This document shows, piece by piece, positions 1,463 through 22,456 of a stretch of DNA of 33,874 bases (positions are counted from its first letter, which is position 1; each line of letters opens with the position of its first letter). The stretch is from NCBI GenBank assembly GCA_937967805.1, contig CALBTC010000432.1, positions 1 through 33,874 of the forward strand, in the 5' to 3' direction. Both the position numbers and the translations under genes were made by a program. The stretch is from an uncultured Anaerolineaceae bacterium. GTDB taxonomy: Bacteria > Chloroflexota > Anaerolineae > Promineifilales > Promineifilaceae. Under the pieces are notes generated by a model that did not search any database, was not told the DNA's origin, and saw only the letters and a program-made list of their open reading frames with translations.

Positions 1463-1529
1463 CACAAAGGACGCGATGAACGCAAAGAGAAAACAGGAAA
1501 TACTTTGCGCGCTTTGCGTCCTTTGCGGT
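1463..1529. repeat. Nonamer inverted tandem array A
   Basis: Three 9-bp units (CACAAAGGA, CGCGATGAA, CGCAAAGAG) at 1463-1489, a 13-base spacer, then three units of the complementary type (CTTTGCGCG, CTTTGCGTC, CTTTGCGGT) at 1503-1529. The outer arms 1461-1474 and 1516-1529 pair at 13 of 14 positions, so the RNA could fold into a long hairpin. It fills the whole gap between the permease and the GldG-like gene, and its last bases include a GTG that opens the downstream ORF artificially. Confidence 0.8.
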
Positions 1530-1542
1530 GAGTAAAAAATCT

Positions 1543-3108
1543 ATGAAGCAGAAACTTGATCGAATTGCACCCATTTTTCCGATTTTGGCCCTGCTCCTGC
1601 TGGTTGGCGGGGGCGTAGTTTATTTTGTCACCCGGCGCTGGGATTGGCTGCCCAATTTACTGCTGGCCGGCAGCGGGCTGCTCCTGGTCCTGTTTGCTGT
1701 GCTGTGGCCTGACGATGTGCGCGCCCGGCTGGGCGGCCGCGGCGGGCGCTACGGCGGCACGCTGCTCATCAGCTTGTTATTTACGGCCGTCTTCGCCCTG
1801 CTCTATTACGTCGCTTACCAAAACAGCGATTGGCGCTACGATGCCACCGCCGACAACGCCTTCACCCCCCTGCCCGAAACCATCGGCCTGCTGCAATCGC
1901 TCGACGAGCCAATTCACGTTCTGGGCTTTTACACCGCCGACACCGCCTTCCAGCGCAGCGAGGCGGAAGCCAGCCTGCAAGCCATGCAGGCGTACACCGA
2001 CCAGCTCAGCTACGCGTTTGTTGATCCCAACGAAAATCCGCTGCAAGCTGAAGAATATGACCTCTCCTTTGCCGGGACGCTGGTTTTTACCCGCGAAGAT
2101 GGCACCTTTGCCAAAGCGTCCACCCTCACCGACCGGGATTTGCACACCGCACTGGTGCGTACCATTAACCCCACCGTCAAAACCGCCTACTTTTTAACCG
2201 GCCACGGCGAGCGGGATTGGGAAGATTTTGGCGTGGACGGGATTAGTACGGCCGTGACCCTCATGGAAGAATCCGGCTTTACCGTGCAACCGCTCAATTT
2301 GTTCGTCAGCGGCACGGTGCCGGACGATGCCGGCGCCGTTTTTCTGATTGACCAGCAAGCCCCACTGGCCGCCGAAGAAGTGGAGGCTCTCGCCAGCTAC
2401 GTGGGCAATGGCGGCTCGCTCTTCATCGCTCGCGACGCGGTGGACACCGAAGGCCGCGCCGCTGCCGAAACCGACGGCCTGCTGCCCTGGCTGCAAGAAA
2501 ACTGGGGCATCACCCTGCGCAACGACCTCATCATCGACGCTTCGCTGGCCCAGGCAGGGCAAACGATTGGCCTCACGTTTGTGGGGGCAGATTACGGCAG
2601 CAGTCCCATCACCCAGGGATTAGCGCAGTTTGGCACGATTTTTAACGTGGCGCGATCGATTGAGACGGAACTGCCGCCGGAGGTGACGGCCGTCAACCTC
2701 ATCACCACCAGCGAACTGGCCTGGGGCGAAACCAACTTCGAGCGCATGGCCACCGCCGGCGAAGTGGCCCCCGACGAAGGAGAAGACGCCACCGGCAGCC
2801 TCACCGTCGCTCTGAGCGCCCTGAATACCATCAGCGGCGCCCGCCTCGTTGTCTTTGGCGACACCGATTTCCTCACCAATTCGTTCATCCAGCAGGGCGG
2901 CAACAGCTTCCTCTTCGAGAACGCTGCCAATTGGTTGGTGGATGACGTCATCTCCATTGAACTCTCCGCTCGCGAATCGGTGCCGCGCCAGGTCACCATC
3001 ACCCAGAGCCAGCTCAGCCTGCTGCAATTTGTCAGCATCTGCTTTGCCCCCGGCTTGCTGGCGCTGGTGGGCATCGGCGTCTGGTACTCACGCCGCCAAC
3101 GGCAGTAG
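1543..3108 (+). CDS. GldG-like ABC transporter auxiliary membrane protein
   Basis: Membrane-anchored auxiliary subunit of the GldA/F-type exporter, about 521 aa. ATG 1543 is chosen because the in-frame GTG at 1528 is part of a repeat array; GGTGAG at 1527-1532 can serve as ribosome binding site. Three hydrophobic segments lie in the first 100 residues. A large extracytoplasmic domain follows, with the pattern of the ABC-type uncharacterized transport family (PF09822): a phase like FLTGHGERDW, a VFLIDQQAPL block and a GGSLFIARD block. A C-terminal anchor (LLALVGIGVWYSRR) ends the protein. GldG-like proteins accompany GldA/GldF ATPase-permease pairs, which matches this order. The role in export is not known in detail. 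Length and topology are as usual for the family. Confidence 0.85.
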   Translation: MKQKLDRIAPIFPILALLLLVGGGVVYFVTRRWDWLPNLLLAGSGLLLVLFAVLWPDDVRARLGGRGGRYGGTLLISLLFTAVFALLYYVAYQNSDWRYDATADNAFTPLPETIGLLQSLDEPIHVLGFYTADTAFQRSEAEASLQAMQAYTDQLSYAFVDPNENPLQAEEYDLSFAGTLVFTREDGTFAKASTLTDRDLHTALVRTINPTVKTAYFLTGHGERDWEDFGVDGISTAVTLMEESGFTVQPLNLFVSGTVPDDAGAVFLIDQQAPLAAEEVEALASYVGNGGSLFIARDAVDTEGRAAAETDGLLPWLQENWGITLRNDLIIDASLAQAGQTIGLTFVGADYGSSPITQGLAQFGTIFNVARSIETELPPEVTAVNLITTSELAWGETNFERMATAGEVAPDEGEDATGSLTVALSALNTISGARLVVFGDTDFLTNSFIQQGGNSFLFENAANWLVDDVISIELSARESVPRQVTITQSQLSLLQFVSICFAPGLLALVGIGVWYSRRQRQ

Positions 3109-3118
3109 GGTAACGGGG

Positions 3119-3142
3119 TGACAGGATGACAAGGTGACAAAA
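3119..3142. repeat. Octamer direct array B
   Basis: Three 8-bp units, GTGACAGG, ATGACAAG and GTGACAAA, follow each other 10 bases after the stop of the GldG-like gene. No complementary half is seen. It belongs to the same class of short-unit arrays found at most gene boundaries of this window. Confidence 0.65.
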
Positions 3143-3347
3143 CACCTCCATTTTTATCCTGCTTCTTCTCCTCAATACAGGTGCAAGCCGGGCCAAGGCC
3201 GGCAAGTCGGTTAAAGAGTGGCAGCCAAACCGAATTCCGATTAATATTCAGCTGCGGCGCTACCTGGCACGGGCCAAATTCTGGCCCGCCAAACCAACCG
3301 TCACTGATTTGGCCTCCCCGGCCAATCTCAATTTCTTTCCAGACTAA
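3138..3347 (+). pseudogene. Possible gene remnant without start codon
   Basis: The 314-base gap 3109-3422 holds one protein-like frame. Codons 3138-3344 are open and end at TAA 3345. They give 69 residues with a hydrophobic stretch (IFILLLLL) and a basic, Trp-containing tail with the segments KEWQPNRIPINIQLRRYL and FWPAKPTV. There is no ATG, GTG or TTG upstream in frame; the frame begins directly inside the octamer array. It could be the 3' end of a gene whose 5' part was lost, or a chance frame. No family is recognised. The rest of the gap is the octamer array and the hairpin at 3352-3407. Confidence 0.25.
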
Positions 3348-3351
3348 CCAC

Positions 3352-3407
3352 AACCTCCCGCAGGTTTCATTTATGAGTCTCGCCTTGGAGTAAACCTGCG
3401 GGAGGTT
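3352..3407. repeat. Perfect 16-bp inverted repeat before the mutarotase-like gene
   Basis: AACCTCCCGCAGGTTT at 3352-3367 is the exact reverse complement of 3392-3407, with a 24-base loop. The right arm ends seven bases before the GGAG ribosome binding site (3414-3417) of the gene starting at 3423. There is no T-tract, so a simple terminator is unlikely. It may be a dispersed repeat or a leader hairpin near the ribosome site. Confidence 0.8.
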
Positions 3408-3422
3408 TACTATGGAGACAAC

Positions 3423-4322
3423 ATGAAACAGATACCATTTCTCGGCTGGGAAAACTGCATCCAGCTCAGCAACTCACAAATCGAACTCATCGTCACGGCC
3501 GATGTCGGCCCGCGCATCATCCACTTTGGCTTCATGGGCGATGAAAACGTCTTTGCTACCTTTCCCAACCAATTGGGGCGTACCGGCGACGCCGAATGGC
3601 GCAACTACGGCGGCCACCGCTTCTGGCTGGCCCCGGAACAGATGCCGCGCACCTACTACCCGGACAACAACCCGGTCACTGTAGAAGACCACGGCGCGTT
3701 TGTCCGCTTTATCGCCCCGGTAGAGACGACGACACGAATGCAGAAAAGCATCGACATCGCCCTCGATCCCGATGCGGCCAAAGTGACGGTGATGCACACG
3801 GTACAAAACTTAAATCCATGGACGGTGGAACTGGCTCCCTGGGCGCTTTCGGTGATGGCTCCGGGCGGAACGGCCGTCCTCCCCCTTCCCCCCCGTGGCA
3901 GCCACACTGAAAATCTCCTGCCCACCGGCCGCCTGATCACCTGGGCTTACACCAACATGAGCGACCCGCGCTGGACCTGGGGCGAGCAGTACATCTTGCT
4001 GCGCCAGGATCCCGACGCCACTTACCCGCAAAAGATTGGCAGTAACAACACGGCCGGCTGGTTGGGGTATGTAAAAGACGGCCGTTTCTTCCTCAAGCAG
4101 TTTCCGTCCCATGATCCCCAAGCCATTTATCCCGATTTCAACAGCTCTGCCGAACTGTTCACCAACCAGCATATGCTGGAAGTGGAAAGCGTGGCGCCGC
4201 TGGTGCAGCTAGAACCCAACGCCAGCGCCAGCCACACAGAAACGTGGCATCTCTTTGCCAACGTGCCCGCACCGCAAAACGATGCCGACGTAGCGGCCCA
4301 TCTGCTGCCCCTTTTCAGCTAA
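3423..4322 (+). CDS. Mutarotase-fold protein, DUF4380-like
   Basis: Predicted 299-aa soluble protein with the pattern of the galactose-mutarotase-like beta-sandwich superfamily. The N-terminal strand block LIVTADVGPRIIHFGF, the following GGHRFWLAPE block and the pair LNPWTVELAPWALSVMAPGG resemble DUF4380-type and aldose-epimerase-like proteins, which bind carbohydrates through conserved His and acidic residues. No signal peptide is visible, so a cytoplasmic role on a sugar or sugar conjugate is inferred. Start ATG 3423 has GGAG at 3414. It is a single gene: the GldG-like gene is 314 bases upstream, and the feoC-like gene converges from the other strand 25 bases downstream. A secreted protein of a similar fold type occurs at 28324-29883. 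Substrate and activity cannot be named. Confidence 0.65.
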   Translation: MKQIPFLGWENCIQLSNSQIELIVTADVGPRIIHFGFMGDENVFATFPNQLGRTGDAEWRNYGGHRFWLAPEQMPRTYYPDNNPVTVEDHGAFVRFIAPVETTTRMQKSIDIALDPDAAKVTVMHTVQNLNPWTVELAPWALSVMAPGGTAVLPLPPRGSHTENLLPTGRLITWAYTNMSDPRWTWGEQYILLRQDPDATYPQKIGSNNTAGWLGYVKDGRFFLKQFPSHDPQAIYPDFNSSAELFTNQHMLEVESVAPLVQLEPNASASHTETWHLFANVPAPQNDADVAAHLLPLFS

Positions 4323-4347
4323 CGCTGCTGGCAGGGGCCAGGCTGAC

Positions 4348-4656
4348 TTAATCCTTTTCCAGGGATGGCGGGCAGGTGATGCCGACGGCCGTAAGCGGAA
4401 TGGTTGTGTCGCCGCTGACCAGTTCATACGTGCGCGGTAGGGCCAGCACAAAGGGACAGGCGCTGCCGTGGCCGCAGCTGCCGCACTCCGTCAGCGCGCT
4501 GCTTTGGCGGATTTTGCCCTTGCGCACCCAATGCTGGATCATGCCGTCCAGCTGTGCTTGCGAAATGCCCAGTTCGCGGGCAATTTTAGGCAGGGGCACG
4601 GGGGATGCGGCCGTTTCAAAAATGGTTAAAACCTGACGTAGTATACTTTGTGTCAT
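4348..4656 (-). CDS. feoC: FeoC-like winged-helix protein with four cysteines
   Basis: Small 102-aa protein at the end of the feo operon. The start is the ATG at 4656 (MTQSILRQ); the frame continues upstream into a heptamer repeat array, which gives an artificial 26-residue extension. Residues 1-50 form a helix-turn-helix pattern (LPKIARELGISQAQLDGMIQHWVRKGKI), as in FeoC (PF09012). Cysteines lie at 58, 61, 67 and 95 (C-x2-C-x5-C then a distant C), a plausible iron-sulfur or metal site like that of enterobacterial FeoC. FeoC proteins are proposed to control FeoB stability or feo transcription; its position directly after feoB fits. The sequence is divergent, so FeoC-like is safer than FeoC. 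Confidence 0.7.
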   Translation of the reverse strand: MTQSILRQVLTIFETAASPVPLPKIARELGISQAQLDGMIQHWVRKGKIRQSSALTECGSCGHGSACPFVLALPRTYELVSGDTTIPLTAVGITCPPSLEKD

Positions 4657-4665
4657 GATTTTCCG

Positions 4666-4721
4666 TAATCGGTAATCGGTAGTCGGTAATCCGTTATCGG
4701 TAAACGGATTACCGATTACCA
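4666..4721. repeat. Heptamer inverted array C (8 units)
   Basis: Eight contiguous 7-bp units: TAATCGG, TAATCGG, TAGTCGG, TAATCCG, TTATCGG, TAAACGG, then the complementary-type ATTACCG and ATTACCA. The reverse-complement half stays in the same 7-bp phase. Eleven-base arms (4685-4695 and 4703-4713) pair perfectly around a 7-base loop. The array separates feoB from the feoC-like gene and lies just upstream of the latter's start. Confidence 0.85.
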
Positions 4722-4734
4722 TCCCTCTTCCCAT

Positions 4735-6990: not shown

Positions 6991-7018
6991 GTGAAACCTC
7001 TCTTCAAAATTGCTTTGT

Positions 7019-7312: not shown

Positions 7313-7314
7313 GT

Positions 7315-7551: not shown

Positions 7552-7576
7552 CCTTTTGCCGCTCCTTTAAAACATC

Positions 7577-7637
7577 CACAGATTATGCCGATTTCGCAGA
7601 TTATTTTTCATCTGTGTAATCTGCGTAATCTGTGGAT
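7577..7637. repeat. Nonamer inverted array D between dtxR and feoA
   Basis: Three 9-bp units, CACAGATTA, TGCCGATTT and CGCAGATTA (7577-7603), a 7-base spacer, then TCTGTGTAA, TCTGCGTAA and TCTGTGGAT (7611-7637). Nested perfect arms exist: 7574-7585 with 7626-7637 (12 bp) and 7595-7603 with 7617-7625 (9 bp). The transcript could form a strong hairpin between the regulator and the transporter genes. Confidence 0.85.
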
Positions 7638-7645
7638 ACTTACTT

Positions 7646-8314: not shown

Positions 8315-8333
8315 GGTTCACCTATCCTTAGAA

Positions 8334-8374
8334 ATAAGGGTTACCTTATAAATAATGGTAGCCTTACCTGTAAA
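8334..8374 (-). promoter_or_regulatory. Promoter and two putative metal-regulator operators before the dtxR-family gene
   Basis: On the minus strand, TTTACA (8369-8374) and TATAAG (8345-8350) are separated by 18 bases and form a sigma-70-like promoter. A palindrome with arms ATAAGG/CCTTAT (8334-8339, 8344-8349) overlaps the -10 box. A second, GGTA-GCCT-TACC (8357-8368), fills the spacer. Both resemble DtxR-family boxes only loosely (AGG...CCT arms). Their position is what an autorepressor would need. The link is inferred. Confidence 0.55.
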
Positions 8375-8406
8375 AAAAACAGTACGAGCAATGTTAGGCA
8401 ACTATC

Positions 8407-8420: not shown

Positions 8421-8454
8421 AAAATGAAATGGGCCTCAAAACTCTTAAGATTTT

Positions 8455-8503
8455 GCGTGATGCGTGAAACGTGATTTCCTCCTCACGCATCACGTTTCAC
8501 GCA
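8455..8503. repeat. Heptamer inverted array E (7 units)
   Basis: Seven contiguous 7-bp units: GCGTGAT, GCGTGAA, ACGTGAT, a non-matching TTCCTCC, then TCACGCA, TCACGTT and TCACGCA. Arms 8459-8474 and 8490-8505 are perfect 16-bp complements around a 15-base loop. It lies upstream of tex. Confidence 0.85.
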
Positions 8504-8575
8504 TCTTCCCAGCGCTTTTTCACCTTTCGCCCCAAATCATGCTAAGATCGTGAGAAAAACAGGTGGAATCATTCA

Positions 8576-12120: not shown

Positions 12121-13632
12121 ATGAAAGAAAAAGTAATTATCATTGGTAGTGGTTTTGGCGGCCTGGGTGCCGCCGCCCGTCTGGCGGCTCAGGGCTACCA
12201 GGTAGATATTTTTGAGAAGTTAGACCAGCCTGGCGGCCGAGCTTACGTATTTGAGCAGGACGGTTTTAAATTTGACGCCGGCCCCACAGTCATCACCGCC
12301 CCGTTTATGTTTGACGATATTTTTGAGCTGGCCGGGCGCAAGCGGGAAGATTATGTGGAATTTGTCGCCTGCGATCCCTTTTACCGCATCTTCGACCACA
12401 ACGGCCGTTTCCTCGACTACAACAGCGACGAACAGTTCATCCTCAACCAGATTGAGCAGTGGAGCCAGGCTGATTGTGAAGGCTACCAGCGGTTTATAGC
12501 CACCACCAAAGCGATTTTCGAGAAAGGGTTCGTAGAACTGGCCGATAAGCCTTTCCTGTCCGTGTCGGACATGATTCGCGTGGTGCCGGACCTGATCCGC
12601 CTGCAGTCGCACAAAACAGTGTACAAATATGCTTCTCAATTCATCGAAAACGAATTTTTGCGCCGCTGCTTCTCATTCCATCCACTGCTCGTCGGCGGCA
12701 ATCCGTTTGATACCACCTCCATTTACGCCATGATCCATTATCTGGAGCGGGAATGGGGCGTGCATTACGTGATGGGCGGCACCGGGGCGCTGGTGCGGGC
12801 GCTGGGTCGATTGATTGAAGAATTAGGCGGCCGTTTCCATCTCAACGCAGAAGTGGATGAAATTCTAGCAGAAAACAGGCGCGCCACCGGCATCCGCCTG
12901 AAAGACGGCACGGTGCACCAGGCCGATCATGTGATCTCCAACGCAGACGTGGCGTTCACCTACACTCAACTCATCGACAGCAAAAACCGCAGCTTGCGCA
13001 ACTCGGATTTCCGCTACAAAAACCTGACGCGGTACAGCATGTCTCTGTTTGTCATCTACTTTGGCACGAAAAAGCGTTACAGCGACGGCAAGTTGGCCCA
13101 TCACAACATCATCCTCAGCGAGCGGTACAAAGGGCTGCTTCAAGACATCTTCAAAAACAAGCAGCTTGCCGACGACTTTTCCCTCTACCTGCACATGCCC
13201 ACCCTCACCGACCCCAGCATTGCGCCCGACGGGCACGAAGGTTTCTATGTCCTCTCACCGGTGCCGCATCTGGGTTCGGGCATCAATTGGGAAAAAACAG
13301 CCAGGCCTTACCGCGACGCCATCATGCAGTTTCTGGAGGACAATTACCTGCCCGATTTGCAGGCCAACCTGGTCACCGAGCATTTTATCGACCCCCGCCA
13401 TTTTAAAGGCGTGCTTAACAGCCACCTGGGTTCCGCTTTTTCCGTGGAACCGATTCTGACCCAATCTGCCTGGTTCCGGCCCCACAACCGGTCTGAAGAT
13501 ATTGGCAATCTCTACTTTGTGGGCGCAGGCACCCATCCCGGCGCAGGCTTGCCCGGCGTGCTTTCCTCCAGCAAGATTGCTGAGGATTTGATTATGAGTG
13601 CACCTGTGGCGGGGGTAATCGGTAAACGGTAA
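12121..13632 (+). CDS. crtI: CrtI-type phytoene desaturase
   Basis: FAD-dependent desaturase converting phytoene to lycopene (inferred product). 503 aa, normal for CrtI. The N-terminal dinucleotide-binding motif [17 protein letters not shown] starts at residue 9, followed by [21 protein letters not shown] in two conserved blocks and [16 protein letters not shown]. The C-terminal FAD signature [19 protein letters not shown] is intact. The stop codon and the last residues (VIGKR) lie inside a heptamer repeat array, so the original C-terminus may have differed slightly. It is 142 bases downstream of crtB and 63 bases upstream of the cyclase. It is more like phytoene desaturases than the second desaturase at 17153, which looks like the CrtD branch. 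Confidence 0.93.
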
Positions 13633-13692
13633 TCGTTGATCAGTAAACAGACTAACCGATTACCGTTTACCGGCCACCGATAACGGATAACA
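13616..13692. repeat. Heptamer inverted array F (11 units) across the crtI stop
   Basis: Eleven contiguous 7-bp units fill the crtI-cyclase junction: TAATCGG, TAAACGG, TAATCGT, TGATCAG, TAAACAG, ACTAACC, GATTACC, GTTTACC, GGCCACC, GATAACG and GATAACA. The second half is of complementary type and in the same phase. Perfect 15-bp arms lie at 13621-13635 and 13657-13671. The crtI TAA (13630-13632) is inside; the next ATG is three bases after the last unit. Confidence 0.88.
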
Positions 13693-13695: not shown

Positions 13696-14523
13696 ATGAC
13701 CTACTTCAGCTTCCTCGGCCTTTTTCTAGGCATTCCAATTATAATCATGCTGGGTGTGACCTGGTGGGATAAGCAGCAAGGCCGCCGGCTGCCGCGCCGC
13801 TTTGCCAGCTATTCACCGTGGATTATTTTGCTGCTGCATCTGGCGCTGGCGCTGGTATACACGACGCCATGGGACAATTATCTGGTGGCCAACTCCGTCT
13901 GGTGGTACGATCCTGGTAAAGTGACCGGCATCGTGCTGGGTTATGTGCCTATCGAGGAATACACCTTCTTTCTGGTGCAGCCGATTTTAGCCGGGCTGTG
14001 GCTGCTGTTTTGGCTGCGGCGCGTGCCGGAGGACGTGGAGACGGGATGGGAAAACGGCCGTTTCCGCACCACCCCGCTTATCATTCTGGGGCTCCTCTGG
14101 CTGAGCATGGTCATCATCCTGGCCGCAAGCTGGGCGCCCGGCACCTACCTCGCCTTAATTCTGGCCTGGGCGCTGCCGCCCATCATGCTGCAAATCGGCT
14201 TTGGCGGCGACATTTTGTGGCGACATCGCCGCGTGGTGCTGCTAGGGTTAATCCCCACCACCCTCTTCCTGGCCACCGCCGATGCCCTGGCCATCTACGA
14301 CGGCATCTGGACCATCGACCCGGCCCAAACGCTTAACTGGCTGCTTGGTGGCATTTTGCCGTTTGAAGAGTTCCTCTTCTTCCTCATTACCAACACCCTG
14401 GTGGTTTTCGGCATGACACTCTTTTTGGCCACAGAAAGCCAGGAGCGATTGGAACAGGTGAAGGCTGTTTTAGCCCGATGGCGCGCGGGAAAGTTACAGT
14501 TAAAGCTAGAGAGTGAGAAGTAA
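13696..14523 (+). CDS. Fused CrtYc/CrtYd-type lycopene cyclase
   Basis: Integral membrane lycopene beta-cyclase of the heterodimeric type with both halves in one chain, as in archaeal and some Bacteroidetes and Chloroflexota enzymes. 275 aa with about six or seven hydrophobic segments. The duplicated motif is clear: PIEEYTFF at 85-92 in the first half and PFEEFLFF at 222-229 in the second; a PWDN motif at 58-61 and IWTIDP in the second half correspond. The paired glutamates are conserved in the family. One cyclised end gives gamma-carotene, two give beta-carotene; the neighbouring CruF favours a monocyclic product. Its stop codon TAA at 14521 lies in a heptamer array shared with the start of cruF. 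No strong ribosome site precedes ATG 13696. Confidence 0.88.
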   Translation: MTYFSFLGLFLGIPIIIMLGVTWWDKQQGRRLPRRFASYSPWIILLLHLALALVYTTPWDNYLVANSVWWYDPGKVTGIVLGYVPIEEYTFFLVQPILAGLWLLFWLRRVPEDVETGWENGRFRTTPLIILGLLWLSMVIILAASWAPGTYLALILAWALPPIMLQIGFGGDILWRHRRVVLLGLIPTTLFLATADALAIYDGIWTIDPAQTLNWLLGGILPFEEFLFFLITNTLVVFGMTLFLATESQERLEQVKAVLARWRAGKLQLKLESEK

Positions 14524-14540
14524 AAAGTGAAAAGTGAAAG
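14513..14540. repeat. Heptamer array G1 over the cyclase stop and cruF start
   Basis: Four 7-bp units GTGAGAA, GTAAAAA, GTGAAAA and GTGAAAG. They contain the cyclase stop (14521-14523) and the GTG start proposed for cruF (14527). Confidence 0.75.
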
Positions 14541-15354
14541 AGTAAAAAGTCGGGTTTTTAATCTAGAACCTCCTTTACCAGTTACAGTCTACCAATTACT
14601 GAATACCAATTCACTGACCACGCTCCTCGTCTTCAGCTGGGTGCTATCGATGATTGCGCTGCCGATCATGAACTGGATTTGGGGATTAGAGACTCTGCCG
14701 CTAGGATTGACGGTGAGCGTGCTGCTGCAAGCTGCGGCCGTCCTACTCATTCTGCGCGGTGGATGGGGCTGGCAAAAAACGGGAGGAACGGCCGTTCTCA
14801 TCGCCGCACTGACCCTGTTTGTCGAATGGCTTGGCTCCACCACCGGCTTCCCCTTTGGCAGCTACCATTACACTGAGTTGATGCAGCCACAAATTGGCGG
14901 CGTGCCCGTGCTCATTCCCGCCGCCTGGTTTATGATGCTGCCCTGCGCCTGGGCCGTCGCCGGCCAGATTCAGAAGCAGTTACCGCCGCGCCTGGCGGCA
15001 AAGCGCTGGTTTTTTCCGCTCATAGCCGGGCTGGTCTTCACCGCCTGGGACCTTTTTCTCGACCCGCAAATGGTGGCGTGGGGATTGTGGACATGGGACA
15101 ATCCCGGCGGTTATTTTGGTATTCCCTGGAGTAATTATGTTGGATGGTGGGGAACGGCCGTGCTGCTCACTATCTTTGTCCGGCCCAAAGAGTTACCCAC
15201 CAAACCGCTGTTCATGATCTATGCCATCACCTGGTTCTTGGAAACGTTCGGCCTTCTCTTTTTCTGGGATTTGGCCGGTCCGGCCCTTGTTGGCGGCGTG
15301 GTGATGGGACTATTTGTCTGGTTGGGCTGGCGATCGGTGGTCAGTATTCAGTAA
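14527..15354 (+). CDS. cruF: CruF-like carotenoid 1',2'-hydratase (DUF422)
   Basis: Membrane protein of the CruF/DUF422 family, which adds water across the 1',2' double bond of the open end of gamma-carotene-type or related carotenoids. 275 aa as read. Hydrophobic segments begin at about residue 32. Family hallmarks are VEWLGSTTGFPFGSYHYTE, VPVLIPAAWFMM, AWDLFLDPQMVAWGLWTW and GGYFGIPWSNYVGWW, including acidic residues in the membrane. In the true CruF family these support hydratase function; substrate here is inferred. The start is uncertain: GTG 14527 lies in a heptamer array, no ribosome site is seen, and residues of about 17-30 come from another heptamer array (14575-14616). The stop is also inside an array (15341-15375). 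A later start is possible. Confidence 0.85.
   Translation: MKSERVKSRVFNLEPPLPVTVYQLLNTNSLTTLLVFSWVLSMIALPIMNWIWGLETLPLGLTVSVLLQAAAVLLILRGGWGWQKTGGTAVLIAALTLFVEWLGSTTGFPFGSYHYTELMQPQIGGVPVLIPAAWFMMLPCAWAVAGQIQKQLPPRLAAKRWFFPLIAGLVFTAWDLFLDPQMVAWGLWTWDNPGGYFGIPWSNYVGWWGTAVLLTIFVRPKELPTKPLFMIYAITWFLETFGLLFFWDLAGPALVGGVVMGLFVWLGWRSVVSIQ
14575..14616. repeat. Heptamer array G2 inside the 5' end of cruF
   Basis: Six degenerate 7-bp units, TTACCAG, TTACAGT, CTACCAA, TTACTGA, ATACCAA and TTCACTG, encode about residues 17-30 of the cruF frame, ahead of the first membrane segment. Confidence 0.65.
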
Positions 15355-15375
15355 TCAGTAGTCAGTAGTCAGTTC
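15341..15375. repeat. Heptamer array H across the cruF stop (5 units)
   Basis: Direct 7-bp units TCAGTAT, TCAGTAA, TCAGTAG, TCAGTAG and TCAGTTC. The cruF stop TAA (15352-15354) lies in the second unit, so the last residues (SIQ) are array-encoded. Confidence 0.85.
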
Positions 15376-15409
15376 ACGGGCACAATCGAACACCTGCCAA
15401 TTCTTACTT

Positions 15410-16009: not shown

Positions 16010-17115
16010 TGACAGGAATTGGCATCTTCATTTCGTTGGCCTTGGGGATTTTGGCGATTACGGCCGTTTCCAACTTCATCTTTTTCCTCCACCTGAAAGC
16101 CCGGCAGCCAGCCCAGGAGCCCAAACTTTCCATTTTGATACCGGCCCGGAATGAAGCGGCCGTTATCGGCGAGACGGTCCGCGATTTGTTGGCCCAGACC
16201 TGCCTTAATTTCGAGCTCATCCTCCTCGACGACCAATCCGACGACGGCACTGGCCGTATCGCTGCCCAAGCCGCTGGCGACGATGTGCGCTTCCGGCTTG
16301 TGACGGGTGCGCCACTGCCACCCGGCTGGCTAGGCAAAAATTGGGCCTGCCACCAGCTGAGCCAGGCGGCCGGCGGCCAATGGCTGCTCTTTGCCGATGC
16401 CGACGTTCGTTGGGCGCCCAATGCGCTGGTGGCGCTGCTCTCTTTGGCCCAAACCGAGCAGGCCGAGCTGCTTACCGTCTGGCCCACGCAGCAGACCGAA
16501 AGCTGGGCCGAGCGGCTGGTAGTGCCGCTGATGAGCTTTGCCATCCTGTGTTACCTGCCCATTTTGCCAGTACATTTCACCCACTGGCCTGCCTTTGCCG
16601 CGGCCAACGGCCAATGCCTGTTATTTCGTCGCGAGGCGTATGACAAAGTTGGCGGGCATACGGCCGTCCGCAACAACGTCATTGAGGATGTGGCGCTGGC
16701 GAGGTTAATTAAAGCAAACCGGCTGCGCCTGCGCATGGCCGACGGCAACCGGTTGGTGAGCTGCCGCATGTACCAGAGCTGGCCAGAAGTCAAGGCAGGT
16801 TTTGCCAAAAACATCCTGGCCGGGCACGGCGGCAGCGTTCCGTTTTTGCTGCTATCCACTCTGTTTCACTGGCTGGTTTTTCTATTTCCCTGGCTCTGGT
16901 TTGCCGCCTCGCTAGACCTCTGGCCAATGGCTTTGGGGCTGGGGGGCATGTTGCTGCGGGCGGGCACGGCCGTTTTCACTGGCCAACGCCCACTTGATGC
17001 CATCTTCATGCCCGTGTCCGTCCTGCTCATGACCCGTATCGCCTTTCAATCGATCCGGTGGCAGCGGCGCGGAACGGCCGTGTGGAAAGGAAGGAGGTTG
17101 GAGAGTGGAGATTAG
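16009..17115 (+). CDS. Family 2 glycosyltransferase, CruG-like
   Basis: Membrane-associated GT2 enzyme, 368 aa. The ATG 16009 overlaps the preceding stop (TGATG); a longer in-frame reading is only the shadow of the plsY-like gene. The first hydrophobic segment spans residues 5-28. The GT-A core has SILIPARNEAAVIGET (41-56), LLDDQSDDGT (72-81), the DXD-type metal site DAD at 130-132 and a later NNVIEDVALARLIK block that holds the likely catalytic acid. Two to four hydrophobic segments close the chain. CruG in cyanobacteria is a GT2 enzyme encoded with CruF that glycosylates the 2'-hydroxyl of myxol; the position here after cruF argues for a carotenoid glycosyltransferase. The sugar and the exact hydroxyl cannot be read from sequence. 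Confidence 0.85.
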   Translation: MTGIGIFISLALGILAITAVSNFIFFLHLKARQPAQEPKLSILIPARNEAAVIGETVRDLLAQTCLNFELILLDDQSDDGTGRIAAQAAGDDVRFRLVTGAPLPPGWLGKNWACHQLSQAAGGQWLLFADADVRWAPNALVALLSLAQTEQAELLTVWPTQQTESWAERLVVPLMSFAILCYLPILPVHFTHWPAFAAANGQCLLFRREAYDKVGGHTAVRNNVIEDVALARLIKANRLRLRMADGNRLVSCRMYQSWPEVKAGFAKNILAGHGGSVPFLLLSTLFHWLVFLFPWLWFAASLDLWPMALGLGGMLLRAGTAVFTGQRPLDAIFMPVSVLLMTRIAFQSIRWQRRGTAVWKGRRLESGD

Positions 17116-17152
17116 TTCAATCGCCAATCTCTACTCTGAAGAGCTTTTGTTT

Positions 17153-18700
17153 ATGAACGACATTTTAATCATCGGCGCGGGCATTGGCGGGCTCAGCACA
17201 GCCATCCGGCTGGCCGCCGCCGGGCAGCGCGTGACGATCTATGAAAAGAACCCGCAGGTTGGCGGTAAGATGAGCCAGGTCCGGGCCGGCGGCTTCCGCT
17301 GGGATATCGGCCCCTCGGTGATTACGATGCGGCACGTTTTTGAGGAACTGTTCGCTGCCGCCGGACGCCGCCTGGAAGATTATTTGACGCTGCAACCGGT
17401 TGAGCCGCTGACGCGCTATTTTTATCCAAACGGCACCATCCTCAACGCCACACAGGACCGTAAGCAGATGGCCCGGCAGATTGAGCAAATTGAGCCAGGC
17501 GATGTAGATCGCTATCTGGCCTACCTGGATTACGCCGAACAAATTCACCGCATCACCGGCCCGGTGTTCATCTACGACAGGCCGCCCACGTGGCGCAGCT
17601 TTTTGCGCGTGCCGTTGGCCGACTGGTTTAAGATCGACGGCTTGCGCACCATGCAGGCTGCCATTGAGGATCATGTGCAGTCGCCGGAACTGCGGCAGCT
17701 TTTGGGCCGCTTTGCCACCTACGTGGGCGGCAGCCCATACCTGGCCCCGGCCACGCTCAACGTCATTGCCCACGTGGAGCTGTCCGGCGGCGTCTGGTAT
17801 CCACGGGGTGGCATCTACAAGATCGCCGAAGCAATGGCCCGACTGGCCCGCGAGCTGGGGGTAGAAATTCATACTAATTGCGGCGTGCAAGAAATTGTGG
17901 TGGAGAACGGCCGTTTCCATCACCTGCTTTTGGATAACGGTGACACTGTTGAGGGAACGGCCGTTGTCAGCAACCTTGACATCACCACAACGCGAAAATA
18001 TTTGTTGAAAAACGTTAACGCAAAGGCGCAGAGGCGCAGAGGTTTTCGTGGTTGGTTATCAAAACTTCGTCCGCAGCCCGAATCCTCATCCAGCCCCAGC
18101 CCCATTCACAATTCACAATTCGAACCGTCTTGCTCCGGTTTCATTCTACTCCTCGGCCTCGACAGGCAGTTTCCGGAGCTGGCTCACCACAACATCCTCT
18201 TTTCGCCCGACTACCCGGCCGAATTCAAGGCAATCTTTGAGCAAGGCCGCCCACCTGACGACCCAACCATCTACATCGCCATTACCAGCAAAACCGATCC
18301 CCAACATGCCCTCGCCGGCGGCGAAAACTGGTTTGTGCTGGTCAACGCCCCGCCCCTGGATGACGCTTACGATTGGCAAGCCAACCAACAACGATACCGC
18401 GATCTGGTATTGCAAAAAATTGCCGATTTCGGCATTGACGCGCGCGACCACATCGTCACCGAGCAGATAGTGACACCTCACGACCTGGCAAAAGGCAGCG
18501 GGGCGTGGCGTGGCGTGCTGTACGGGGCGTCGCCGAACTCACGCTGGGCGGCATTTAAACGGCCACACAACCGCTCAGACATCCCCGGACTGTATTTTGT
18601 GGGCGGCACCACACACCCCGGCGGCGGCGTGCCGATGGTCACACTCTCCGGCAAGGTGGCAGCGGAGTTGTTATTGGAGGATTTGGAAAAAAAATTGTAA
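17153..18700 (+). CDS. CrtD-like carotenoid desaturase with repeat-derived insertion
   Basis: Second CrtI-superfamily oxidoreductase, 515 aa. ATG 17153 is preferred over an in-frame start at 17105 because it places the FAD motif GAGIGG at residues 8-13. Other marks: EKNPQVGGKMSQV, DIGPSVITM, the SCSGFILLLGLDRQFPELAHHNILFS region and the C-terminal GLYFVGGTTHPGGGVPMV. The SCSGF/LGLDR block is typical of 1-hydroxycarotenoid 3,4-desaturases (CrtD), which fits the preceding CruF hydratase. Residues of about 287-325, between KYLLK and SCSGF, are low in homology and encoded by three octamers (18019-18042), linker DNA and three heptamers (18104-18124): repeats have expanded a surface loop without breaking the frame. 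Whether the enzyme is still active is unknown. Confidence 0.87.
   Translation: MNDILIIGAGIGGLSTAIRLAAAGQRVTIYEKNPQVGGKMSQVRAGGFRWDIGPSVITMRHVFEELFAAAGRRLEDYLTLQPVEPLTRYFYPNGTILNATQDRKQMARQIEQIEPGDVDRYLAYLDYAEQIHRITGPVFIYDRPPTWRSFLRVPLADWFKIDGLRTMQAAIEDHVQSPELRQLLGRFATYVGGSPYLAPATLNVIAHVELSGGVWYPRGGIYKIAEAMARLARELGVEIHTNCGVQEIVVENGRFHHLLLDNGDTVEGTAVVSNLDITTTRKYLLKNVNAKAQRRRGFRGWLSKLRPQPESSSSPSPIHNSQFEPSCSGFILLLGLDRQFPELAHHNILFSPDYPAEFKAIFEQGRPPDDPTIYIAITSKTDPQHALAGGENWFVLVNAPPLDDAYDWQANQQRYRDLVLQKIADFGIDARDHIVTEQIVTPHDLAKGSGAWRGVLYGASPNSRWAAFKRPHNRSDIPGLYFVGGTTHPGGGVPMVTLSGKVAAELLLEDLEKKL
18019..18042. repeat. Octamer array I1 inside the CrtD-like gene
   Basis: CGCAAAGG, CGCAGAGG and CGCAGAGG in direct order, in frame within the desaturase. 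Same unit type as the intergenic array at 1463-1529. Confidence 0.85.
18104..18124. repeat. Heptamer array I2 inside the CrtD-like gene
   Basis: ATTCACA, ATTCACA and ATTCGAA encode the residues IHNSQFE just before the conserved SCSGF block. Confidence 0.8.
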
Positions 18701-19254
18701 CGCGCCAATCTCTCGCCGTACCGTAACGGTCGACCTGGCTACCGAAAATTTTCGCTCTGTGCAGACGCCCCACCATCATGAGTGATTGAATAAGCGCGAC
18801 ACGTGAGAATTGTCAAACGGCCGTTCACAGCTAAAATGTGCAGCATGAGCTGGTCACTAAAAACTGCCGCCAGGCATGGTACTCTTTTCCAAACCATCGC
18901 TTTGCTAGGCTTGCTGCTTACCCTCTTTTTTGCTAATGAGCAGGTTGGGTCGCTGTTTGGCAAACACACCCCCGCCGCCGGCAGCCGATCCAGGCACACC
19001 GGCTATTACCTAATTGATTGTGCGCACGACATGGAATGGTTGGGAATACGTTAATTGGCCTGCACCCATGCGGCTGAACCCGCTGCCCAGCAGCCAGTCA
19101 ACCTGGATTTTTGATTCGGAAGAAACATGGTACCTGCGATAGACTTCAGCAGCGATTACCGACCACATGCATGAAAATTTCACGCCAAGCCGCCAGATGC
19201 GCCAAACAAGCTTTGCGACTTTGCGTGAGGTTATTTATATACAAGGAGAAAGCT
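18701..19254. other. 554-base gap with possible decayed gene
   Basis: No convincing gene. A plus-strand frame at 18803-19054 (83 codons) has one hydrophobic segment (TIALLGLLLTLFFA) but no ribosome site. Its frame is followed, one base shifted, by an open stretch 19014-19142 ending in the segments GWEYVNWPAP and [14 protein letters not shown], which reads like a real C-terminus. The two may be parts of one frame-shifted, decayed gene; no family is recognised. The right end holds an octamer array (19183-19226) and the ribosome site of the next gene. Confidence 0.4.
19183..19226. repeat. Octamer inverted array J before the ThDP enzyme gene
   Basis: CGCCAAGC, CGCCAGAT and GCGCCAAA, a 4-base spacer, then CTTTGCGA and CTTTGCGT. 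The left half is degenerate. The array ends 16 bases before the ribosome site of the gene starting at 19255. Confidence 0.6.
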
Positions 19255-20994
19255 ATGGCAGCGGAGATGAACGGCGGCGTGTTGGTGGGTGAGGTGCTGC
19301 AAAAGCAGGGCGTGCAATTTTTGTACACGCTGTGCGGCGGGCATATTTCGCCTATTTTGGTGGGGGCTGAACAACAAGGAGTCCGGGTGATTGACGTGCG
19401 GCATGAGGCAACGGCCGTTTTTGCCGCCGACGCCACTGCCCGTTTAACCGGGATACCCGGCGTGGCGGCCGTCACGGCTGGCCCCGGCGTCACCAACACC
19501 ATTACTGCCCTCAAAAATGCGCAAATGGCCCAATCCCCCCTGGTGCTCATTGGCGGCTCGGCAGCCACGCTGCTAAAGGGGCGCGGCGCGCTGCAAGATA
19601 TTGACCAGCTTGCCCTGGTAAAACCCATTGTGAAGTGGGCTCGCGTCGCTAAAAAAGTGCGTGACATTGTGCCCCTGTTGGAAGAGGCGTTTCAGGTTTG
19701 CCAGCAGGGCGTGCCCGGCACTGTCTTCCTGGAAATTCCCATCGATTTGCTCTATCCGGAAGCGCTGGTGCGGAGTTGGACGATGGAGTCAAGCGGCAAA
19801 GGGCTGCTGGGCAAAGCGATGACGCTCTATTTTAGCGGGCATCTACGGCGCACCTTTGGCCGCGCCTGGGAACAGCGGGCCGGCGATCCCCAGCCGGTCA
19901 TTCCGCCGCTGCCCGATGCCAATGAAATAAAAAAGGTGGCTCAGACGCTGCTGGAAGCAAAACGGCCGTTACTCATCATCGGCAGCCAGACATTGGTTGA
20001 CGCCCAAAAAAGTACCGCGCTGCAACAAGCCGTTAAAAAGCTGGGCGTTCCCACCTACCTTTCCGGCATGGCGCGCGGCCTGCTGGGGCACAACCCGCTG
20101 CATCTGCGGCACAAGCGCAGCAAAGCGTTGCGCGAAGCGGATGTGATCATTTTGGCGGGCGTGCCGGTGGATTTTCGATTGGGTTACGGCCGTACCATTC
20201 CTCGAAGCACCACCTACATCTCAATCAATCGCAGCAAGGAAGATTTAACTAAAAACCGCCGTCCTACCGTTGGCGTGCTGGCCGATCCGGGCGCTTTTCT
20301 GCGCATGTTGGCCGAAAACTGGAACCCGGAGCTTACGCCGGCCACCTGGGAAGATTGGCATACCAACCTGGCCGCACGAGATGCCGCCCGCGATGCGGAA
20401 ATCGGCCAAACGGCGCAAGAAGCCACTGATTTGGTGAATCCCGTTTGGTTGTGCCGGCAGTTGGAAACGGCCGTGGCCGAAAACAGCGTTCTCATTGGCG
20501 ACGGCGGTGATTTTGTGGCCACGGCCAGCTACATCGTGCGGCCGCGTGGACCGCTGAGCTGGCTGGACCCCGGCGCGTTTGGCACGCTGGGGGCCGGCGG
20601 CGGCTTTGCCCTGGCCGCCAAGCTGTGCCGCCCGGAAGCCGAGGTGTGGCTGCTGTACGGCGATGGCTCCGCCGGCTACTCCCTGGCTGAATTTGACACC
20701 TTTGTCCGGCACGGCGTGGCTGTCATCGCCGTTATTGGCAATGATGCCTCATGGGCCCAAATTGCCCGAGACCAGGTGGAGATTTTGGGCACGCCGCTGG
20801 GCACAGAGCTGGCCCAAACCAATTATCATGTGGTGGCACAAGGCTACGGTGGCGAGGGTTTTTGTGTAGATGATCCGGCGCAGGTGAACGAGATTTTAGT
20901 AAAGGGGAAACAGGTGGCGGGGAACGGCCGTCCCGTGCTGATTAACGCGATGATTGGCAAAACCGATTTCCGCAAGGGGTCAATTTCAATGTGA
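19255..20994 (+). CDS. ThDP-dependent enzyme resembling ILVBL/2-hydroxyacyl-CoA lyase 2
   Basis: Thiamine diphosphate enzyme of the acetolactate synthase superfamily, 579 aa. Start ATG 19255 has AAGGAG six bases upstream; an in-frame extension to 19111 is array-derived. The N-terminal domain carries [15 protein letters not shown] and the catalytic Glu51 in [18 protein letters not shown], then [23 protein letters not shown]. The ThDP/Mg2+ motif is GDG at 469-471 with Asn496 (GDG-X24-N). These blocks, plus LQDIDQL and the FGRAWEQ segment of the middle region, resemble the animal ILVBL (HACL2) protein, which cleaves 2-hydroxyacyl-CoA, more than true IlvB. No small regulatory subunit gene is adjacent, which also argues against acetolactate synthase. 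The bacterial substrate is unknown; lysis of a hydroxylated acyl-CoA is inferred. Confidence 0.82.
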
Positions 20995-21023
20995 GGCCCC
21001 TTATCTCACCAAATCACTGCGAA

Positions 21024-21123
21024 TTGTCATTTCGACCGAAGGGAGAAATCCTTCTAAGCTAGCAGGGAAACTGCCTGGACTGGCCTAGAAGGATTTCTCG
21101 CCAAAAGCGGCTCAAAATGACAA
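21024..21123. repeat. Dispersed inverted-repeat element, copy 1
   Basis: About 100 bases bounded by TTGTCATTT (21024-21032) and AAATGACAA (21115-21123). Inner perfect 14-bp arms at 21043-21056 and 21086-21099 include GAGAAATCC/GGATTTCTC. The sequence next to the left end (CGACCGAAGGGAGAAATC) matches the right end of the element at 31111-31209 in reverse complement. It lies between convergent genes and contains no ORF, so it is a MITE-like or REP-like element. Confidence 0.8.
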
Positions 21124-21189
21124 GTTAAGGTACTTCGCAGAGAATGTCTGGTTATCGTTTACGATCCACTAAGGAATCTGAAGGCGAGC

Positions 21190-22230
21190 TTAATCTTCGT
21201 CTAAATGCTCGCCGGTTTGGTCCAGCCAGCGGGGCAGGTAGTTGTGCCGGTAGTAGAGCATAGCGGCGAAGCATAGACCAAAAGCCAGGGTTGCGATGAT
21301 GGTGACTTGCCACATAACGGCCGTAAACGGCACCAGCCACAACGTCGTAATCAACTCCAGCCCAATGAGGGAAAGCAAGAAGATGATAATCGCCTCCCGG
21401 CTGACCTTGGAGCCAACAAACGCTCCCAACGGTGCACCAACCACCACGATGGGCACCGCCACCAGCGAATACCGCCAGACGTCTGGTGAAATATCCTGGG
21501 CCACTAACCCGTGGAAGAGAAAGCCCACAATCGAATTCAACCCCATGATAATCACCGTGGTCGGGGTGCTTATCTTTTCATTGACGCCAAACATCAAAGT
21601 CAGCACGATAAACGTCACCACGTCAATACCGGAGCCGACGTTGGCGGCAAACATGCCGCCAAAAACCCCCAGCAGCACAAAAATCAGGCGATGCCGGCGC
21701 GTCCACTGCGGCAAATCGTGCTGCGGCGTCCAGTGCAGCCCCCAGCGAGAAATAATCAAGGCTACGCCAAATGCGGTGGTAACAAAAGTGAAGAAGATTT
21801 TGGGATAAGGCGCGGGCAGTGGAAACCAGAATAAGCCCAGCATATGGCCAAAAATCCCACCCAATGAGACAAAAAAGATAACTCTAGGCAGTACCTTAAT
21901 GCCGCGCGATACAATAAAAATACTGGCCATACCCATGCCAAAAGTTTGGATCATCAGGCTGAAGGTCCGGGCATCGGTGGCAGCGATGTGCAGCACTTTG
22001 GTAAAAACGGGAAAGGCAACAGCGCCACCGCCTTCGGCCGTAATTCCGGCCACAAAGGAGCCTAGCACCATTGTAAGGGAGGCAGGCCAATATGAATAAA
22101 ACAGTGCCCAGTTTTGTGAGAGGGTCATATAGATGACCCAAATAGTGTAAATCGTTGCCAAAACGGCAGGGTAAATGAGGTGGCGAACTCGCCGGGATTG
22201 ACGCAGGGTTAACAAAGCTTGCTGTTGCAT
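21190..22230 (-). CDS. TauE/SafE-family permease
   Basis: Integral membrane protein of the TauE/SafE (DUF81) family, 346 aa, eight or nine hydrophobic segments. Members export or import sulfite, sulfoacetate and other organic anions. Marks are the duplicated glycine-rich segments GSFVAGITAEGGGAVAFPVF and GGMFAANVGSGIDVVTFIVL, and GAPLGAFVGSKVSREAIIIF. The ATG at 22230 is chosen because AAGGAGG lies 11 bases upstream; a GTG at 22263 would place this ribosome site inside the coding region. It is divergent from the Ca2+ ATPase gene and convergent with the ThDP enzyme gene. Substrate unknown; sulfonate or sulfite is the family default, not shown here. Confidence 0.88.
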   Translation of the reverse strand: MQQQALLTLRQSRRVRHLIYPAVLATIYTIWVIYMTLSQNWALFYSYWPASLTMVLGSFVAGITAEGGGAVAFPVFTKVLHIAATDARTFSLMIQTFGMGMASIFIVSRGIKVLPRVIFFVSLGGIFGHMLGLFWFPLPAPYPKIFFTFVTTAFGVALIISRWGLHWTPQHDLPQWTRRHRLIFVLLGVFGGMFAANVGSGIDVVTFIVLTLMFGVNEKISTPTTVIIMGLNSIVGFLFHGLVAQDISPDVWRYSLVAVPIVVVGAPLGAFVGSKVSREAIIIFLLSLIGLELITTLWLVPFTAVMWQVTIIATLAFGLCFAAMLYYRHNYLPRWLDQTGEHLDED

Positions 22231-22342
22231 ACCATTGCTGGCCTCCTTGCCTGTTGCAGGCACTTCGAAGTAGGATGTTTACGAATCTGGAGATCGTAAG
22301 GAGTCAAGCTTACGGAGATTCTTGCTGCTAAATGTACGTTTT

Positions 22343-22372
22343 TTGCGACTTTTTGTGGAACTTGGGTATAAA
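22343..22372 (+). promoter_or_regulatory. Putative promoter of the P-type ATPase operon
   Basis: TTGCGA (22343-22348), an 18-base spacer and TATAAA (22367-22372) on the plus strand. The transcript would carry the nonamer array K in its leader before GAGGAG (22465-22470) and ATG 22475. Confidence 0.5.
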
Positions 22373-22388
22373 TACATGAATGAAAATC

Positions 22389-22456
22389 CGCAGATTTCGC
22401 AGATTTCGCAGATTATTTTTCTCTTTTCCTCTGCGTTCTCCGCGCTCTCCGCGGTT
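22389..22456. repeat. Nonamer inverted array K in the ATPase leader
   Basis: CGCAGATTT, CGCAGATTT and CGCAGATTA (22389-22415), a 14-base spacer, then TCTGCGTTC, TCCGCGCTC and TCCGCGGTT (22430-22456). The left units are nearly those of array D before feoA. Confidence 0.85.

What the first reader, a model, noticed from the sequence alone, without database searches (positions are those of the whole stretch)
1463..22456. Family of 7-, 8- and 9-bp tandem arrays with in-phase inverted halves at gene boundaries
At least eleven arrays lie at 1463, 3119, 4666, 7577, 8455, 13616, 14513/14575, 15341, 18019/18104, 19183 and 22389. Units differ from array to array, but the unit length is fixed. In arrays C (4666-4721), E (8455-8503) and F (13616-13692) the complementary half keeps exactly the 7-bp phase, so the array length is 56, 49 and 77 bases. 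That points to a replication or template-switch mechanism acting on hairpins, not to ordinary transposition. The nearest analogue I know is the STRR family of cyanobacteria.
Basis: partly seen in the sequence, partly recalled or inferred. Interest (0 to 1): 0.78.

Follow-up and report, generated by a model that had tools for sequence, protein, structure and literature searches.

The report
Head-to-head short-repeat arrays between genes
Many gene boundaries in this bacterium and its relatives carry small arrays of 7- to 10-letter DNA repeats that face each other in one fixed orientation, are swapped for other repeats in relatives, and have no known maker.

Summary
The arrays are real. The window is Anaerolineae-like Chloroflexota (closest relatives found: 89% and 86% identical in one protein). 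In about 1.2 Mb from each of two relatives, gene boundaries show an excess of tandem periods 7 to 10, strongest at 7. Arrays often form two inverted halves. The 'exact 7-bp phase' does not generalise. What does is polarity: one strand of the unit, usually the G-richer, comes first. Same-family pairs: 72 concordant, 0 discordant in nine families; mixed-family pairs: 6 in that order, 0 reversed, 2 parallel, of 8 scorable among 52. Over 201 Chloroflexota genomes GTGA-type pairs number 168 against 6, AGTG-type 216 against 0. Halves are not mirror copies, loops mostly differ, and orthologous junctions carry the same family, another, or none (13/13/32 of 58). That disfavours hairpin template switching and copying of one hairpin. 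Best model, barely ahead of selection for gene-end signals: strand-specific repeat addition on both sides of a break, then joining, as in head-to-head telomere repeats. No enzyme was found, and conserved gene order at arrays counts against it. Closest published case: convergent GGGAATC pairs of Xanthomonas (PMC4692102).

The parts
1463..1527 (.). Element A: 9-bp units, left half 1463-1487 (CACAAAGGA/ACGCAAAGA type), right half 1503-1527 (reverse complement type); between ABC-transporter-type genes
   Evidence: fold -34.2 kcal/mol; related sequence in L002, below the array threshold
3117..3140 (+). Element B: single 8-bp array, GTGACAAG type, one half only
   Evidence: L002 has longer 8-bp arrays plus a GTGAAAC pair in this gap
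4664..4721 (.). Element C: 7-bp GTAATCG units then inverted half; between feoC-like and feoB genes
   Evidence: -31.9 kcal/mol; same family in L001
7575..7636 (.). Element D: 9-bp CACAGATTA/CGCAGATTN units, inverted halves; between the feo genes and a dtxR-like gene
   Evidence: -35.1 kcal/mol
8454..8505 (.). Element E: 7-bp GTGATGC/GTGAAAC units, left 8454-8475, right 8483-8505; between divergent dtxR-like and tex genes
   Evidence: -26.9 kcal/mol; no array at the orthologous place in L001
13614..13690 (.). Element F: 7-bp GTAATCG units, inverted halves; between carotenoid-type genes
   Evidence: -32.6 kcal/mol; L002 carries other families here, 7-bp left and 8-bp right
14511..14617 (.). Element G: left half GTGAAAA/GTAAAAA, right half reverse complement of a GTAATTG/GTATTCA type (unlike halves, by eye)
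15340..15374 (+). Element H: single 7-bp GTCAGTA array overlapping the stop codon of a carotenoid-synthesis-type gene
   Evidence: L001 and L002 hold GTGAAAA-type arrays at this place
18019..18122 (.). Element I: left half 8-bp CGCAGAGG 18019-18042, right half 7-bp ATTCACA 18104-18121; in-frame insert in a CrtI-like gene (17105-18700)
19177..19230 (.). Element J: degenerate 9-bp CGCCAAGNN / CGCAAAGNN units, inverted halves; dispersed element
   Evidence: by eye; about 19162-19251 matched at 80-89% in five G001 contigs
22386..22456 (.). Element K: 9-bp CGCAGATTT left half 22386-22414, CTCCGCGCT right half 22429-22453; upstream of a cation ATPase gene
   Evidence: 98% over 85 bp at G001:C151 and many other places in G001 and G002 at 74-100% over shorter or equal lengths

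Best explanation
These are dispersed head-to-head tandem-repeat elements. Shown: a left half of 7- to 10-bp units on one strand, a short and mostly unconserved junction, and a right half of units on the other strand, in that order, with the G-richer strand usually first. Shown: the two halves may belong to different unit families and lengths; the same site may hold another family in a relative; element I is an in-frame addition to a protein gene. Inferred: an activity adds short units of one strand to the 3' ends on both sides of a break or nick, each side on its own, and the ends are then joined. This would be like two telomere ends fused head to head. Sites are re-made from time to time with whichever unit is then active. 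The enzyme and its template are not identified.
For: Polarity within families: 72 concordant, 0 discordant; at another setting 82 inverted, 0 direct of 103 neighbour pairs, the other 21 mixed or unclassed. Mixed-family pairs with known polarity: 6 forward-reverse, 0 reverse-forward, 1 FF, 1 RR; 44 of 52 could not be scored; two of the 6 join closely related units (GTGAAAC and GTGATGC types), two differ in period, one is window element K. Phylum scale, 201 genomes: GTGA..TCAC 168 sites in 17 genomes against 6 in 5 for the opposite order; AGTG..CACT 216 in 16 genomes against 0 (overlapping matches count more than once, and the two patterns overlap). Forward unit has G>C in 12 of 16 families, 2 ties, 2 opposite (my count; p=0.013; families not independent). 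Halves are not mirror images. Loops of 21 GTGA-type elements are on average no more alike than shuffled ones (0.403 against 0.401). Same site, other family: 13 of 58 directed comparisons, e.g. window F and H. Element I: query residues 18-307 and 331-525 match residues 2-292 and 290-485 of CrtI-type chain 4rep_A, so about 23 residues are extra there; they cover most of the left half and the middle, while the right half falls in the aligned part. Vertebrate precedent: head-to-head telomere repeats explained by a second telomerase on the other side of a break (PMC8537989, passages seen).
Against: No machinery: reverse transcriptase PF00078 in 14 of 27 array-rich and 58 of 174 other genomes, Ku PF02735 in 2 of 27 against 6 of 26. 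Arrays prefer junctions whose gene order is kept (G002 29 of 77 kept against 10 of 79 broken, p=0.0004; G001 17 of 81 against 7 of 76, p=0.047), which sloppy break repair would not predict. Loop lengths cluster at 5-7 and 10-12 in GTGA elements and a few loops resemble each other (best pair 0.91). Single arrays are oriented by the nearer gene (86 of 132, p=0.0006). The 9-bp class has near-whole-element matches. Six opposite-order sites exist, and 5 of 84 same-family pairs were direct. No clean empty site with close flanks was found.
Confidence: 0.32

Rival explanations
1. Arrays arise by polymerase slippage and are kept by selection as gene-end signals: the units are recognised in RNA or DNA (mRNA end, termination, translation), and orientation relative to the gene is selected.
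For: Excess at gene boundaries; orientation of single arrays relative to the nearer gene 86 of 132; kept gene order; 119 of 254 clusters hold a stem scoring 14 or more against 14 of 254 control places; units keep some positions and vary at others (GTANACAN, [GA]GAGATT); orthologous sites hold an array in 26 of 58 against 225 of 1310 background junctions. Similar placement is reported for GGGAATC heptamers (PMC4692102).
Against: Elements with unlike halves cannot pair well; halves show no extra complementarity to their own partner; families differ in half of the sites that hold arrays in both; the order also holds inside a coding sequence (element I, by eye).
Confidence: 0.3
2. They are REPIN-like palindromic mobile elements moved by a Y1 transposase (RAYT).
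For: Inverted pairs with a less conserved spacer are typical of REPINs (PMC3116915, passages seen); Y1_Tnp PF01797 in 16 of 27 array-rich against 41 of 174 other genomes, p=0.0004, genome size and kinship not controlled; near-whole copies in the 9-bp class.
Against: 11 of 27 array-rich genomes gave no Y1_Tnp hit. The one Y1_Tnp gene viewed in context (one of three in G001) is flanked on both sides by a different hairpin of the CCTCCCGCAGG..CCTGCGGGAGG type, and the nearest array is 2.6 kb away. At least nine unit families with inverted pairs, unlike halves and mostly unshared loops.
Confidence: 0.15
3. Template switching on hairpins during replication copies one half into the other.
For: Inverted halves; stem scores of 18 or more in 51 of 254 clusters; window elements fold well.
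Against: Both orders expected, one seen almost always; halves not mirror images; mixed families; phase not fixed in two of three families.
Confidence: 0.07

Closest known systems
GGGNATC heptameric repeats of Xanthomonas and Nostoc (Rehm et al. 2015, PMC4692102; abstract, sections 13, 14, 16 and further passages seen)
   Same: 7-bp intergenic units; 70 and 75 close pairs 'with convergent orientation' in two Xanthomonas genomes; unit strand depends on nearness to start or stop; gene order around repeats more conserved than in controls; divergent gaps under-represented; length variation between relatives.
   Different: One G-rich family able to form G-quadruplexes; here many families, periods 7-10, mixed-family elements, and another family at the same site. 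Few pairs were found in Nostoc.
TAACTGA direct repeats of Beggiatoaceae, Cyanobacteria, Bacteroidetes (MacGregor 2015, PMC4679880; abstract, sections 3 and 10 read)
   Same: Intergenic heptamer arrays with patchy spread across phyla; no mechanism known.
   Different: One family; 169 direct sets and one indirect repeat in the main genome, so paired halves are rare there.
STRR heptanucleotides of cyanobacteria (recalled; a Calothrix report is cited in PMC4692102)
   Same: Short tandem 7-bp intergenic arrays.
   Different: Host phylum; unit sequences not compared; I do not recall a head-to-head rule for them.
REPINs and RAYTs (PMC3116915, passages seen)
   Same: Dispersed inverted pairs between genes.
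   Different: REPINs have a conserved 16-mer end per group and a RAYT near by; not tandem units.
Interstitial telomeric sequences, head-to-head type (PMC8537989, passages seen)
   Same: Tandem units in forward then reverse order inside chromosomes.
   Different: Eukaryotic, one hexamer, known enzyme; a works-like comparison only.

Membership tests
Cyanobacterial STRR | Tandem 7-bp units in intergenic DNA (definition recalled) | tested here: met
Cyanobacterial STRR | Cyanobacterial genome | tested here: not met
   closest relatives found are Anaerolineae MAGs
Cyanobacterial STRR | Published STRR unit sequences | not tested
   no cyanobacterial genome set was searched
Heptameric convergent repeats (Rehm 2015) | Close pairs in convergent orientation | tested here: met
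   5 of 84 same-family pairs were direct
Heptameric convergent repeats (Rehm 2015) | GGGNATC or GGGGAYT units | tested here: not met
   0 of 357 7-bp arrays in the window and the fetched parts of G001, G002, G122, G066
Heptameric convergent repeats (Rehm 2015) | Gene order around repeats more conserved | tested here: met
   p=0.0004 and 0.047
REPIN | Inverted pair of one conserved end sequence, spacer less conserved | tested here: inconclusive
   inverted pairs yes; ends are tandem units of many families
REPIN | Copies next to a RAYT gene | tested here: inconclusive
   one Y1_Tnp gene viewed, flanked by another hairpin and not by arrays; the other Y1 genes were not viewed
Head-to-head telomeric repeats | G-richer strand first on both strands | tested here: met
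   12 of 16 families G>C, 2 ties, 2 opposite (own count)
Head-to-head telomeric repeats | Telomerase-like reverse transcriptase and template RNA | tested here: inconclusive
   PF00078 in 14 of 27 array-rich genomes; a template was not sought

The most novel reading that the evidence does not exclude
Some bacteria own a telomerase-like, strand-specific activity with interchangeable 7- to 10-nt templates that caps both 3' ends of chromosome breaks with repeats before they are joined, leaving head-to-head arrays as scars that are re-broken and re-written with new units.
Probability: 0.17. Interest if true: 0.92.

Novelty: new variant of a known kind. Interest (0 to 1): 0.62.

Why it matters
Heptamer arrays have been noted in bacteria without a mechanism (PMC4679880, PMC4692102). 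The polarity rule, the mixed-family elements and the change of unit family at fixed sites turn the question into testable predictions, and they disfavour the two easiest answers (hairpin copying, one copied palindrome). If unit addition is templated, bacteria would have a counterpart of telomere addition.

Tried and rejected
Rejected: exact 7-bp phase as a general feature. Mirror copying of halves; one search kept only elements with a stem score of 10 or more; one search had no such filter and tested the four genome-family groups with four or more pairs; its one positive group was split and lost the effect. Arrays as rearrangement scars (one search shows the reverse). RAYT as the mover of 7-bp arrays: a statistical association, but contrary context at the one gene viewed. 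Ku end joining. Reverse transcriptase as a shared factor (p=0.08). Known RNA family: none over threshold in the window. Plasmid searches with a GTGAAAC pair and with element K gave only partial matches, at most 45% of the query. Literature: eight searches; I saw no description of these arrays in Chloroflexota in their listings, and any statement that the rule across families is not in print rests on those searches only.

Limits: gene calls are greedy open reading frames, not curated. Period 9 is also frequent in coding DNA (20 coding against 32 boundary segments in G001, 47 against 21 in G002). In one search the reversed control pattern outnumbers the GTRANNN pattern in some genomes counted as array-rich (G015, G063, G074, G146, G171); I read this as other heptamer families that fit the reversed pattern (such as AGTG), which one search supports for G063 and G171. 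The counts include overlapping matches. The 'no array' class includes some degenerate arrays, and its 58 comparisons include reciprocal ones. G066 elements (8-bp left, C-rich 7-bp right) were read by eye and are not in the polarity count; two of them have GTAACTT-type right halves, which by the GTRA naming would be parallel, not inverted.
Full report
What is there. The window is a Chloroflexota genome piece: its phytoene-synthase-like protein is 89% and 86% identical to two Anaerolineae MAG contigs, L001 and L002, which lie in genomes G001 and G002. Large parts of the window align to both at 76-89% DNA identity. Pfam names the neighbours as ABC transporter, FeoABC, DtxR-like, Tex, carotenoid, glycosyltransferase, TPP enzyme and ion transport genes. 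The eleven listed arrays exist, ten of them reported by Tandem Repeats Finder, the eleventh seen by eye.

More than chance. In 1.19 Mb of G001 and 1.20 Mb of G002, boundary and intergenic DNA (about a fifth of the bases) holds 39 and 153 segments of period 7, 13 and 57 of period 8, 32 and 21 of period 9, and 9 and 14 of period 10, at 12 of 14 matches; one second-order Markov simulation of all bases gives 2-7 for these periods, and boundary counts for periods 4, 5, 11 and 13 stay at 0-6. Period 9 is also common inside genes (20 and 47). The word GTAATCGGTAATCGG with up to two mismatches occurs 540 times in G001 and 372 times in G002 over both strands, against 25 and 24 for the reversed word. 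In 151 Chloroflexota genomes 37 have a match with up to one mismatch, but only G001 is rich in it. The looser heptamer pattern GTRANNN x3.5 occurs in 43 of 201 genomes, often in other unit families; in several of these its reversed control is as frequent or more so.

Architecture. Arrays cluster into elements of two inverted halves: 119 of 254 clusters hold a stem scoring 14 or more, against 14 of 254 control places; the median span of such stems is 56 bp. Window elements A, C, D, E and F fold to -27 to -35 kcal/mol; G, H and I fold weakly for their length. The order of the halves is fixed. Same-family pairs within 40 bp are 79 inverted and 5 direct; in the nine families with two or more inverted pairs, 72 are concordant and 0 discordant. 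By my reading all nine paired elements of the window obey the order. Across 201 genomes the GTGA pattern gives 168 sites in the rule's order and 6 in the other, the AGTG pattern 216 and 0. In G001 alone the GTGA pattern is 78 to 0.

Unlike halves. G002 has 8-bp GTGAAGGG with 7-bp GTAAACG, 7-bp GTGGCAA with an 8-bp family, 8-bp CGCAGAGA with 9-bp CACAGATTN, 8-bp GTAATTGG with 7-bp GTGAAAA, and nested sets. Of 52 mixed neighbour pairs, 8 had polarity known from same-family pairs: 6 in the rule's order, 0 reversed, 1 FF, 1 RR. Of the 6, two join closely related units, one two different 7-bp families, two differ in period and one is window K. G066 shows long examples, an 8-bp GTASACAS array followed by C-rich 7-bp arrays (by eye).

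Halves and loops. With partners permuted within a family, own pairs score no better in GGAGATT (17.2 against 17.3, n=23, P=0.55), GTACACAG (n=6, P=0.41) and AATTACCC (n=4, P=0.72). They scored better in the pooled GTGAAAC family (17.7 against 14.4, n=25, P<0.0002). All 25 of those pairs have both halves in one sub-family, and within the sub-families the effect is gone (n=19, P=0.10; n=6, P=0.99). So halves share a family but are not copies of each other. Loops of 21 GTGA-type elements average 0.403 identity against 0.401 shuffled; the best pair reaches 0.91; lengths are 5-7 and 10-15. Units vary mainly at certain positions: [GA]GAGATT, GTANACAN, GTGA[AT][AG]C.

Change over time. Of 58 directed comparisons of orthologous junctions (some reciprocal), 13 carry the same family, 13 another family and 32 no array at the setting used; the background at junctions of 0-300 bp is 225 of 1310. 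So sites are shared above background (26 of 58) while the unit often differs. Window F is GTAATCG in the window and L001 but 7-bp GTGAAAA plus an 8-bp family in L002; window H is GTCAGTA but GTGAAAA type in both relatives; E has no array in L001; L002 has a GTGAAAA-type pair where the window has the Feo cluster. Element I is an insert in a CrtI-like protein: residues 18-307 and 331-525 align to residues 2-292 and 290-485 of PDB chain 4rep_A, and L001 and L002 have 8 residues more and 11 fewer there, in frame.

Place in the genome. Arrays are found at 29 of 77 conserved and 10 of 79 broken gene neighbourhoods in G002, 17 of 81 and 7 of 76 in G001. Single arrays have the 3' end of the forward strand pointing away from the nearer gene in 86 of 132 cases, and divergent junctions have the fewest arrays per base. 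All three facts agree with what Rehm et al. report for GGGAATC heptamers (PMC4692102, sections read), although no GGGNATC or GGGGAYT array is among the 357 7-bp arrays here.

Machinery. In the 201 genomes, 27 have five or more GTRANNN hits. Y1_Tnp is found in 16 of these 27 and in 41 of the other 174; RVT_1 in 14 of 27 and 58 of 174. Ku is found in 2 of 27 (these 27 without G108 and with G002) and in 6 of 26 chosen genomes without hits and of at least 3 Mb. The Y1_Tnp gene at G001:C70:3621-4196 is flanked by hairpins of the CCTCCCGCAGG..CCTGCGGGAGG type, which also occurs once in the window (3354-3405) and in 6 exact paired copies in the fetched part of G001. So this RAYT-like gene seems to serve that hairpin.

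Mechanism. Hairpin template switching predicts both orders and mirror halves; a copied palindrome predicts shared loops and like halves. Both fit poorly, apart from the 9-bp class, where element K has a 98% match over 85 bp at G001:C151 (whether that place is its ortholog was not checked) and many weaker ones. Slippage with selection explains place and gene-order conservation but not unlike halves. Strand-specific addition at both 3' ends explains order, unlike halves, unshared loops and replacement, but lacks an enzyme and does not predict conserved gene order. I put it first with confidence 0.32, hardly above the selection rival; both may be true, one for origin and one for retention.

Spread. 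In 393 Pseudomonadota genomes the GTGA type has 35 sites in 18 genomes against 8 in 6, and the AGTG type 4 against 2; four genomes (G258, G331, G422, G579) hold three to six GTGA sites each and none of the opposite order. Single hits may be chance. The rule may therefore hold outside Chloroflexota, on thin evidence.

Noticed in passing
window 21015-21140 and 31095-31215: Two copies, in opposite orientation, of a dispersed hairpin of about 110 bp (TTGTCATTTCGACC...; folds to -58 and -33 kcal/mol) with matches in many G001 contigs. A separate MITE-like family.
   Followed up: partly
window 3354-3405: REP-like hairpin CCTCCCGCAGG..CCTGCGGGAGG; hairpins of this type flank both sides of a Y1_Tnp (RAYT-like) gene at G001:C70:3621-4196.
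   Followed up: partly
window 8326-8366: Period-18 palindromic repeat (CCTTAGAAATAAGGGTAA) just upstream of the DtxR-like gene, almost unchanged in L001: probably iron-repressor operator sites (motif judged from memory).
   Followed up: no
Chloroflexota genomes (e.g. G066:C8:21503, G082:C11:97903, G030:C41:57741): A group of long Y1_Tnp frames (430-576 aa) occurs in 12 genomes, 10 of which have at least two heptamer hits. Shared ancestry may explain it.
   Followed up: no
Klebsiella plasmid records: 23-25 bases of GTGAAAC repeats, exact, at two to four places in four plasmids of 104-114 kb; meaning unknown.
   Followed up: no
G002 GTGAAAC elements: Loop lengths cluster at 5-7 and 10-12 bases although loop sequence is mostly not shared; a few loops end in CTCTGG-like letters. 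Unexplained.
   Followed up: partly
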